Of a stretch of DNA of 64,000 bases, positions 34,301 to 37,300 are shown one piece after another. The translations under genes and the position numbers were made by a program. The stretch is from Mya arenaria (Eukaryota > Mollusca > Bivalvia > Myida > Myidae), in the NCBI RefSeq assembly GCF_026914265.1, contig NC_069126.1:37141725-37205724 (forward strand). The letters run 5' to 3'. Each line of letters begins with the position of its first letter. Within the stretch, counting starts at the first letter, position 1. The notes beneath the pieces were generated by a model. It saw nothing but the letters and a program-made list of their open reading frames with translations, made no database searches and was not told the origin of the DNA.

Positions 34301-37300
34301 AACCAACATTGACACCATACTATTATATGTGGCTATTTTGAATTTATTGTAAAGTGACACATGTGTAGGTTCATGTCTTGAAAGTGCACTGTGATAAAGC
34401 TACTGTTGGAAGTTTAATACTAAGAACCTGTGAAACCTAGGTATTAAAGAGAGATTAATATGGGAAAGAAAGCTATGTATTGGTTTACACTAATTCCTTT
34501 CAGCTTGATTGTGACTAAAGCTTATAAAATCATGCGGGAGTCTGTCAAGGGAAGAAACCAGCCATGGAATTGCTCCCCAGGTGAGGATCAAACCCAAGAC
34601 CTCATCGGTGAGCAATGGACAATTATAGTGCTAGAACACTCTCAACCTCAAAGCTCTGTATTAGACAAGGAGGAAAAGCACAAGGGTATCCAAACTTTCA
34701 AAATATATTGAGTTACAAAAGAGATATTGTGAAAATGACTATGATCACTTGAGTATTACTAAAGTTTTACTGTTTACATAAAAGAATAAGAATAGCTGAA
34801 ACAATCATGAGCAAATAGTATTAAGATATGCTGTAAATTGGTGCTTGGCAGACACATGCATAGGTAGAAAAGTTTTGCTAAACATTACAAATCCACATGT
34901 ATTAAAACTTGTTTACTTTGTTATACCACATTGGACAAGTACACTTGATGATAAAAACTTGACATATTAAGTTACTAGGATATGTTTCTGGTATATGAAA
35001 CAAAATCTTGAACCAATTAATACAGCAGACAGGGCCTTGGCAGAAATTCACTATGAACGGATGGCATCCACTTAAAGTTTAAATTCCAGTTTATGAAGAG
35101 AAGAGCAACAAAGTGAAACTCAAACGAAAATGCTGTATCATTCAATGTGCTTTAAAAATATCTTAAAATGTTGACAATCAAATGAAAATCTTGCACTTTC
35201 ATTTGTTTAATTTAGTAATGATTGATCACTAATTGTTTCAGCTATAACACTGTACAAGTGACAGTAATGTGAAGATAACACACAGAGAAGGTGCCCAATT
35301 CTGTGCCATCTCCTGTCAGAGTGCACGCATACCTTTATGAAGAGGATCGGTATAATTTGCTTATTTTTACTGTAATGCCTCGCAACCCTATATAAATTCT
35401 CTGGTACATATTCCAAAACTAGATTCAGGAAGACCTCTTCCTTCTGAAAATCAGAAAATGTTTTGTTATAAAAGCATTAAAAGTTAACTTGTCAGAGTTT
35501 GAAAGAACTGCAAATTTAGCCAACACCTACATTCATCATGACTAGTAATGGCATTTTTTTTAATAGTGATGCATTTTCATGATCAGAGACCCAAACATGA
35601 TAGTTGGCATTCTTCTTTTGCATTTCTTGAAAACTCTGACACATAACATTTTAGCATGAAGTATACCTTGATGTAAATTATGGGAATTGTCTGTTTGGAT
35701 TTGCTATAATGTCTCGCCACCCTGTATACTGTCTCCGGAACATACTCTAACACTAGATTCAGGAACACTTCATCTTTCTAAAACAATACGCAGCAAAACA
35801 AACATATATACAATCCTTTGAGCATTTCTTGTTTTTCTAAATCAGATGATTAAAACAATGATTTATTATTGAATCAAATTAAAATACTTCATCCGAAAAC
35901 AATGCATGTTCATCTATACATGATTCATGTACATGTATGATGGCATGATGTAATTATTTACGTCAAATAATATTTTATGCTTAATTTTATACATATAATG
36001 CTGTTATCTTTCTTCTTGTACTAACTTCAATATTATATATAAAAATCCTACAAAACTTAATTGTAAAACTGCATCAATGAGCTGGATTATACCAATTTTA
36101 TCTGGATAAAAAGAGAATCCCATTCAAACCTTTAGTAATTTTGCATGATTTCATGGAAAAAAAATCAACTACTTCACATGTAAATAACTTTTAAAAACAA
36201 AATCGAAAATAGAACATTATCTTGTTAACATTTGACGTTTATAAATCTATTAGTCTTACCTTTTCTCCTGCTGAATAAAAGAAGTACTTGAGTTTGACAA
36301 TATTATGGTGCTCCAGCTTCCTCATGATCTGAAGCTCTCTGTTCTGTAAAACAAAACCATAGAGGTCATGGAACTCGACATTTCACTATCATCTTTTTCA
36401 TTTTTTAATATCTTCTGGTACAAATTCATCACAAGCATTTTTATGCATACCCACTCAAATTGAAGCAGTCTAGGCTGGTTGGTCATTTGACATTCTTGAA
36501 ATCGGAATAAGTATGCTTTATCTACCCATTATGTTCCAGTATTTTCTTCCTGCATGGCAAAAAGTGGTGTGTAACTGGTACAGTCAAACCTGTATTAAGT
36601 GGCCACCCTTGGGAAATGATCAAAGTGGCTGCTTAAGACAGGTGGCCACTTAATCCAGGTTTGACATTTCGCCACTTCAGCTTTATTCAGAGATGGAGTA
36701 TATATCTTAACTACCACCTCACACCACAATCAGTAACATCTGTATCAATATTATTGAAGAAGGTTGAATACAAATACATTTGTATAGATAAAATAACTTT
36801 ATTTCAAATTTATAAATAAAATACATTATATAAATGTTGATACAAGGCATAAACAAAACACCACTACGGCCGTTTTCTAATAACTTTATACACTCGATAG
36901 GTTTTTTAGAGTCAAACACTTTAGATTAGTCTTATTTTCAGCCATAATCAAAGTTAAAAAAACATATCAAGAACAATGCATTGTAAATATCTGTTCGTAG
37001 AAATATAAATCCGTGCACTTTGAAAAACAATATTAAAGTGAATAAAAATCGTAACTTGTTTCACGCCTTCGAATGACAATGCAAACTGTGAATTCATAAT
37101 AACAGGTGTTTGTTATTTTTAAAATTAACTTCGCAATTAATTAATTATCTTATTAAAAGTGTCATTAACTGTGTCAATTCTGATCAAAACATTTGCCGAC
37201 GTGTCATAAACATGATTTCTCGATGAGTAAACACGCATGGCAATCGTGTGATGCAATATTCATTTTCATTGGATGACTGAGATACCCGAGGCCGTCGTTC

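What the first reader, a model, noticed from the sequence alone, without database searches (positions are those of the whole stretch)
35333..35777. Tandem duplicated hinge exon in GSK3: candidate mutually exclusive exons
Two 111-nt exons (4a, 4b), both phase 0, both with good splice sites and 223 nt apart, encode alternative versions of the kinase hinge and start of the C-lobe. By my count 31 nt but only 7 residues differ, so both have been held by protein-level selection. Two of the changes (T to N and V to L, equivalent to human Thr138 and Val139) sit at the mouth of the ATP pocket; others fall on the following helix. I know of no GSK3 with alternative hinge exons; the vertebrate alternative exon (8b) is elsewhere. 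Including both would keep frame but insert 37 residues into the fold, so exclusive use is expected. This would give a clam two GSK3 enzymes with different active-site rims from one gene.
Basis: partly seen in the sequence, partly recalled or inferred. Interest (0 to 1): 0.88.

Follow-up and report, generated by a model that had tools for sequence, protein, structure and literature searches.

The report
Alternative hinge exons in animal GSK3
One animal gene for the signalling kinase GSK3 holds two old, well-preserved versions of the exon that forms the rim of its ATP pocket, so it probably makes two slightly different GSK3 enzymes by choosing one exon or the other.

Summary
An intact GSK3 gene (422 codons) holds exon 4, the kinase hinge, twice (35777-35667 and 35443-35333, minus strand). 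Both are 111 nt, phase 0, with GT-AG sites. They differ at 31 nt but only 7 residues. Synonymous codons are saturated (11 of 30 identical, 12.0 expected by chance); a codon model gives omega about 0.03 and rejects neutrality (2dlnL 44.7). Both exons have long been held by protein-level selection. T138N and V139L are confirmed. Best reading: a mutually exclusive exon pair. Exclusivity is unproven: no transcripts or animal genomes could be searched. New here: the 223-nt intron between the exons can form a 32-pair stem that would bring four candidate branch points within 30-49 nt of the 4a donor, a possible steric block to including both; but similar stems occur in 5 of 85 and 10 of 150 control windows. 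The papers listed show no alternative GSK3 hinge exons; one search listed 20 of 97. FYN, JNK and COQ-2 are the nearest precedents.

The parts
38496..38580 (-). GSK3 exon 1, coding part ([14 protein letters not shown]...)
   Evidence: donor gtaagt; frame joins exon 2
37801..37991 (-). GSK3 exon 2 (glycine loop, VAIKK)
36260..36343 (-). GSK3 exon 3, 84 nt
35667..35777 (-). exon 4a: canonical hinge version, [37 protein letters not shown]
35444..35666 (-). 223-nt intron between 4a and 4b; folds into a long stem (MFE -48.5, z -2.4)
35617..35653 (-). 5' arm of the intronic stem, starting at intron base 14
35478..35514 (-). 3' arm of the intronic stem; buries the CTGAC branch-like site (A at 35492)
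35333..35443 (-). exon 4b: alternative hinge version, [37 protein letters not shown]
32568..32698 (-). GSK3 exon 5, 131 nt (catalytic loop [11 protein letters not shown])
31322..31428 (-). GSK3 exon 6 (activation loop, [12 protein letters not shown])
30509..30702 (-). GSK3 exon 7
29146..29332 (-). GSK3 exon 8
28301..28479 (-). GSK3 last coding exon with stop

Best explanation
Exons 4a and 4b are an old tandem duplication of GSK3 exon 4, used as alternatives, one per mRNA (the stated confidence is for this). The gene then makes two full kinases of 422 residues that differ at seven positions in the hinge end, helix D and the start of helix E (helix names recalled). 4a is the ordinary GSK3. 4b changes the solvent-front residue Thr138 to Asn and Val139 to Leu, plus five others, most likely retuning ATP or substrate handling, or partner and inhibitor sensitivity, in some tissue or condition, without abolishing activity. 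Shown: both exons, their splice signals, the intact gene, synonymous saturation and purifying selection. Inferred: that both are spliced, that choice is exclusive, and the functional effect. For how inclusion of both is avoided, my preferred but weaker proposal (about 0.3) is the stem inside the 223-nt intron, which buries or draws the 4b branch site too near the 4a donor. Choice between 4a and 4b would then be set by splicing factors acting on two weak donors.
For: Same length, frame and phase, GT-AG sites. 31 nt but 7 residue changes, 24 of 31 at third positions. Synonymous identity at chance level (11 of 30 versus 12.0 expected). omega 0.03, grid interval 0.002-0.08 (lower end is the edge of the grid), dS at least 1.69, omega=1 rejected with 2dlnL 44.7. 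Introns do not align clearly above shuffles, while exon identity is 80 of 111 nt. Gene otherwise intact, with one open frame using either exon. The Pkinase profile is matched in one stretch with 4a or 4b and in two when both are included. Five of 4b's seven changes fall at sites that human GSK3A, human GSK3B and 4a share. Published base rate: on the fly X chromosome 6 of 1705 genes had neighbouring exons that looked like exclusive ones but were not (how many genes have true exclusive pairs was not read). Stem: 32 pairs, 0 of 150 shuffles reach its duplex energy, four candidate branch points fall to 30-49 nt from the donor.
Against: No transcript evidence of any kind. No relative could be examined (two searches found no animal locus). 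Both exons are divisible by three, so including both, or skipping both, keeps frame and would escape nonsense decay. With both exons the Pkinase score is not lower (220.6 bits, as for 4b alone; 4a 221.9), and a second kinase profile still spans it in one stretch, at 82.5 against 88.0-88.7 bits. Linear donor-to-branch distance is normal (174-197 nt) and no distant branch point is likely (AG-free stretch of 42 nt). Five intron-intron and two exon-intron pairings are no better than shuffles. The intronic stem is matched or beaten in 5 of 85 windows of this gene's other introns and 10 of 150 random windows, and the fold energy in 12 of the 85. Exclusive exons were among the least common splice events in a Manila clam RNA-seq study (PMC9803972, passages).
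Confidence: 0.8

Rival explanations
1. 4b is spliced in together with 4a (a cassette exon), giving a 459-residue protein with a repeated hinge that is inactive and serves as a regulated off-form.
For: Frame is kept. The 223-nt intron has ordinary splice signals and branch-like sites 26-49 nt before 4b. The total Pkinase score is not lowered by including both.
Against: The extra 37 residues split the Pkinase match into two stretches. An off-form would not need 4b's sequence kept at omega about 0.03. Published analysis holds that high similarity between neighbouring exons embedded in a fold argues against cassette use.
Confidence: 0.07
2. 4b is a relic: once used, now unspliced or on its way out.
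For: No transcript was seen. 4b carries most of the change (about 6.5 of the 7 differences on its branch with human GSK3B as third sequence, 5.5 with GSK3A; worked out from the distances).
Against: No stop, frameshift or lost splice site. At dS of 1.69 or more, drift would have left far more than 7 residue changes. A very recent loss of use cannot be excluded from sequence.
Confidence: 0.1
3. Both exons are used exclusively, but the isoforms are functionally equal; the pair persists because of differences in expression only. This shares exclusive use with the best reading, and its odds are a part of that 0.8.
For: Several changes are mild (D/E, I/L, Y/F), and human GSK3A also has Leu at 156.
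Against: T138, V139, T152, Y157 and D124 are the same in the three other sequences compared; Thr138 borders the ATP pocket (PMC8998611, PMC4092126, passages).
Confidence: 0.25
4. Assembly artefact or allelic copy placed in tandem.
For: None beyond the general possibility.
Against: Synonymous saturation and introns that do not align clearly above shuffles do not fit alleles or a misassembled repeat.
Confidence: 0.01

Closest known systems
FYN exons for FynB/FynT (vertebrate Src-family kinase)
   Same: Mutually exclusive tandem duplicated exons in a kinase; [quoted passage not shown]
   Different: Tyrosine kinase; different part of the domain; exclusive, tissue-linked use is reported
JNK alpha/beta exon pair
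   Same: CMGC kinase (recalled class) with a mutually exclusive exon pair inside the kinase domain (PMC8586503, passage)
   Different: C-terminal lobe rather than hinge; reported isoforms
COQ-2 exons 6a/6e (nematodes; same active-site residues in molluscs and annelids)
   Same: Exclusive exons alter an active site; editing two residues of one form let worms survive where the other form is needed (PMC8659336, passages)
   Different: Prenyltransferase, not a kinase; the functional switch is supported by genome editing
Oyster alternative oxidase duplicated exon 10
   Same: Bivalve gene with a tandem duplicated exon, one copy conserved and one diverged; form switch under air exposure (PMC5589949, passages)
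   Different: Terminal exon with alternative 3' splicing; one mRNA form contains both copies
OGDH exons 4a/4b
   Same: Duplicated exons kept apart by branch points lying near the donor of the intron between them (PMC7969005, passages)
   Different: Uses distant branch points and a long AG-free zone (about 280 nt canonical), which this intron lacks (42 nt)

Membership tests
Tandem duplicated mutually exclusive exons (MXE) | Neighbouring internal exons of like length, same phase, homologous sequence, proper splice sites | tested here: met
Tandem duplicated mutually exclusive exons (MXE) | Both copies intact and under protein-level constraint | tested here: met
Tandem duplicated mutually exclusive exons (MXE) | Each mature mRNA holds exactly one copy | not testable with these tools
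   no transcripts available
Tandem duplicated mutually exclusive exons (MXE) | Joint inclusion disrupts a folded domain | tested here: inconclusive
   Pkinase match splits into two stretches but the total score is not lower; a second kinase profile still spans it in one stretch; no structure model was run
Steric-hindrance type of MXE | Linear donor-to-branch distance under about 50 nt | tested here: not met
   174-197 nt linear for four candidate branch points; 30-49 nt only if the stem forms
Distant-branch-point type of MXE (OGDH-like) | Long AG-free zone between branch point and acceptor | tested here: not met
   42 nt
Docking-site/selector type of MXE (Dscam-like) | Competing pairings between introns, better than shuffles | tested here: not met
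   the best inter-intron tile pairing is reached by 4 of 40 shuffles; of the 2634-nt intron only the first 500-800 and last 500 nt were paired
GSK3 family kinase | Full kinase domain; closest solved relatives are GSK3 | tested here: met
   Pfam Pkinase 221.9 (4a) and 220.6 (4b) bits; the first 47 of the 60 PDB sequences shown (127 matched) for the exon 4-5 stretch are GSK3 alpha or beta
GSK3 family kinase | N-terminal RPRTTSFA with the inhibitory serine, activation-loop tyrosine (recalled motifs) | tested here: met
   Present in the translation

The most novel reading that the evidence does not exclude
A single invertebrate GSK3 gene makes two lasting enzyme forms with different ATP-pocket rims, and a self-contained intronic stem enforces the choice by pulling the branch site of the second exon too close to the donor of the first. 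GSK3 would then have gained by splicing, in this lineage, the kind of division of labour that vertebrates gained by GSK3A/GSK3B gene duplication.
Probability: 0.25. Interest if true: 0.82.

Novelty: new member of a known kind. Interest (0 to 1): 0.62.

Why it matters
GSK3 is among the most conserved kinases and a hub of Wnt and insulin signalling (recalled), normally thought of in invertebrates as a single enzyme. A natural, selected variant of its hinge would show which ATP-rim changes the enzyme tolerates and what they do, and would give a one-gene parallel to the vertebrate alpha/beta split. The intronic stem gives a simple, testable idea of how two neighbouring exons can be kept apart without a short intron or a frameshift.

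Tried and rejected
Rejected: relic or artefact as the leading reading (saturated synonymous sites with strong constraint). Rejected: U12/U2 incompatibility (splice sites are GT-AG with ordinary context, by inspection only). Rejected: distant branch point and linear steric block. Not supported: pairing among the three introns and of the exons with the middle intron (five intron-intron and two exon-intron pairs, 100 shuffles each, reached by 34 to 95 of 100; tiles, reached by 4 of 40, 25 of 25 and 8 of 25 block shuffles). A scan for six splicing-factor motifs in three introns gave small counts; the largest excesses were TCTCT in the long intron (8 against 3.1) and paired YCAY in the intron before 4a (2 against 0.2), with ACTAAY missing from the long intron (0 against 2.6). 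I built nothing on these. Flanking introns were compared for leftover duplication: 13, 101, 38 and 14 of 200 shuffles reach the four observed scores, so nothing clear. Dating by tree shape was considered and dropped: with two human paralogues and the two exons the root cannot be placed, so only saturation speaks for great age. Searches for relatives: viral contigs none; bacterial and archaeal genomes gave six loci, all in records titled as bacteria, not used further. Rfam at gathering thresholds found nothing in 28000-39000.

The stem was noticed late, after the between-intron tests failed, so it is a post hoc find. Its shuffle results (0 of 150 for the duplex; fold energy reached by 3 of 200, and 10 of 500) are weakened by genomic controls: duplex 3 of 47 and fold energy 6 of 47 windows; duplex 5 of 85 (at three places) and fold energy 12 of 85 windows of this gene's introns, and duplex 10 of 150 random windows, of which five lie in the tandem arrays. 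A branch-like site at 35451, only 8 nt from exon 4b, and two others in the first 84 nt of the intron were left out of the distance count.

Full report
WHAT IS THERE. Reading the minus strand from 38580 down to 28301 gives a complete GSK3 coding sequence of 422 residues (exon borders). The fourth exon is present twice: 4a at 35777-35667 and 4b at 35443-35333, each 111 nt and in phase 0, with AG before and GT after. The introns around them are 482, 223 and 2634 nt. A tblastn of nine exons (exon 1 not included) against the window shows no second copy of any other exon and no third copy of exon 4 among its 40 best matches. The repeat finder on 32600-36400, which knew nothing of the gene, reported the same pair as its longest direct repeat, 121 nt at 74% with spacing 334.

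IS IT MORE THAN CHANCE. The exons differ at 31 of 111 nt, 24 of them in third positions, and at 7 of 37 residues. Of the 30 codons with the same residue in both, 11 are identical, against 12.0 expected if codons were drawn at random from this gene's usage: synonymous sites are saturated. A codon model on a grid gives omega 0.03 (interval 0.002-0.08, the lower end being the edge of the grid), dS at least 1.69, and rejects omega = 1 by 2dlnL 44.7 (37 codons, coarse grid). Random placement of 31 changes never left 7 or fewer residue changes in 20,000 trials. The flanking introns no longer align clearly above shuffles (13 to 101 of 200 shuffles reach the scores). So the duplication is old and both copies have been kept for their protein sequence. 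How old cannot be dated here, and the root of the exon tree cannot be placed with the sequences at hand.

WHICH COPY IS WHICH. Exon 4a differs from human GSK3B at 7 and from GSK3A at 8 of 37 residues; 4b differs at 13 and 12; 4a and 4b differ at 7 (human residues). Most of the change is thus on the 4b side. In human numbering the differences are D124E, T138N, V139L, S149N, T152I, I156L and Y157F; 5 of the 7 (124, 138, 139, 152, 157) are at positions where 4a and both human kinases agree. Thr138 is described as next to the solvent-exposed end of the ATP pocket with Gln185 and Phe67 (PMC4092126, docking, passages) and as holding a conserved water in a crystal structure (PMC8998611, passages). 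Both exons keep Glu at 133, as in human GSK3A. From memory, other kinases of this group often have Asp-Leu where GSK3 has Thr-Val, so Asn-Leu in 4b is a believable working variant; I did not test this.

HOW IT MOST LIKELY WORKS. The best reading is a mutually exclusive pair. Including both exons keeps frame but gives a protein in which the Pkinase profile matches in two separate stretches, instead of one for 4a or 4b alone; the total score is not lower (220.6 bits, against 221.9 and 220.6), and a second kinase profile still spans it in one stretch at a lower score. On the fly X chromosome, 6 of 1705 genes had neighbouring exons of this look that were not mutually exclusive (PMC3228551, section 13 read). 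A survey of human cases argues that high similarity within a folded domain speaks against cassette use (PMC5740500, section 7 read). The usual simple causes of exclusivity fail here: both exons are divisible by three, the sites are of the ordinary type, the linear donor-to-branch distance is 174-197 nt for four candidate branch points, and the AG-free zone is 42 nt, unlike the OGDH pair (PMC7969005, passages). Pairing between introns was no better than shuffles, though only parts of the long intron were tested.

A POSSIBLE LOCK. The intron between the two exons is itself an inverted repeat: 35653-35617 pairs with 35514-35478, duplex -28.4 kcal/mol. The whole intron folds at -48.5, with 3 of 200 (z -2.4) and 10 of 500 (z -2.2) shuffles as good. 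No shuffle of 150 held a long-range duplex as strong. The predicted fold has 32 long-range pairs, none of them G-U. It buries the CTGAC branch-like site (A at 35492, unpaired probability 0.00; three others 0.32, 0.63 and 0.77) and would leave these four candidate branch points 30, 34, 41 and 49 nt from the 4a donor, below the 50 nt used as the steric limit in the human survey. A further branch-like site 8 nt before exon 4b was not counted, as it is very near the acceptor. The stem would stop 4a from joining 4b while leaving exon 3 free to join 4b if an outer branch point is used. Against it: similar or stronger stems occur in 5 of 85 windows of this gene's other introns and in 10 of 150 random windows, and the fold energy is reached in 12 of the 85; five of the ten lie in tandem arrays; and I found the stem only after other ideas failed. 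I give this lock about 0.3. The two donors are weak against U1 (both -5.7 kcal/mol; six other donors of the gene -5.6 to -10.8, exon 1 not scored), which would suit regulated choice but proves nothing.

WHAT IS KNOWN. Full-text searches for GSK3 with mutually exclusive or duplicated exons showed nothing on such exons in GSK3, judging from listed titles and starts of abstracts (97 papers, 20 listed; 0; 16 papers, 15 listed); three mollusc searches likewise (22 papers, 20 listed; 3; 42 papers, 20 listed). Three papers on duplicated or mutually exclusive exons do not contain the term GSK3 in the main text (supplements not seen), and the exon-prediction method paper does not contain GSK, sgg or shaggy. 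A paper on a freshwater mussel reports a single GSK3 homologue of 420 residues, without additional isoforms such as alpha (PMC13080398, passages). The nearest precedents are FYN (PMC9741552), JNK (PMC8586503), the COQ-2 exon pair in which two edited residues restored the function of the other form (PMC8659336), and the duplicated exon of oyster alternative oxidase whose forms shift under air exposure (PMC5589949); passages only were read in each. Exclusive exons were among the least common events in a Manila clam RNA-seq study (PMC9803972, passages). The library holds open-licence papers only and the lists are capped, so absence is weak evidence.

LIMITS. No transcripts, no genome for this window and no animal genomes could be searched; searches scanned collections in which an animal relative was unlikely. 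That the animal is a bivalve fits a 181-nt satellite near both ends of the window, which to my memory resembles the BIV160 family of bivalves; no sequence comparison was possible.

VERDICT. As a kind it is known (exclusive exon pairs inside kinases); as a case it is new to the sources searched, in a kinase where it is surprising. The main missing fact is a single splice junction.

Noticed in passing
window 2460-3175 and 61676-62934: Two arrays of the same 181-nt satellite (4 and 7 copies, 93-94% matches) near the two ends of the window; by memory like the bivalve BIV160 family, not compared.
   Followed up: partly
window 14884-15408 and 15873-16370 (+): Leucine-rich-repeat gene (Pfam LRR hits) that by memory looks like LRRC58; GSK3B and LRRC58 are near neighbours in human (recalled), so this may be ancient shared gene order.
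   Followed up: partly
window 50369-54876: About 4.5 kb of head-to-tail arrays (units 27, 36-37, 98, 134 and 330 nt, the shorter ones built on a GTGACACATGCAATA core).
   Followed up: no
window 20917-22591: 45 copies of a 37-nt unit; 37 is not a multiple of three, so the long open frames in several phases probably result from the array.
   Followed up: no
window 56757-58187 (+), repeat 56866-57247: 476-codon open frame with a 93-nt in-frame repeat (4.1 copies, 95%); no Pfam or NCBIfam match at E 0.001.
   Followed up: partly
window 32910-33368: Nested inverted repeats (36 nt at 89%, 101 nt at 72%) in the intron after 4b; looks like a palindromic transposon remnant.
   Followed up: no
window 36468-36770 (-): Strong palindrome in the intron before exon 3 (best internal duplex -44.6 kcal/mol in two overlapping windows).
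   Followed up: no
window 48999-50267: 49-nt repeat array (20 copies and more) next to short open frames that look like exons of another gene at 48402-49050; the two tried had no Pfam hit.
   Followed up: no
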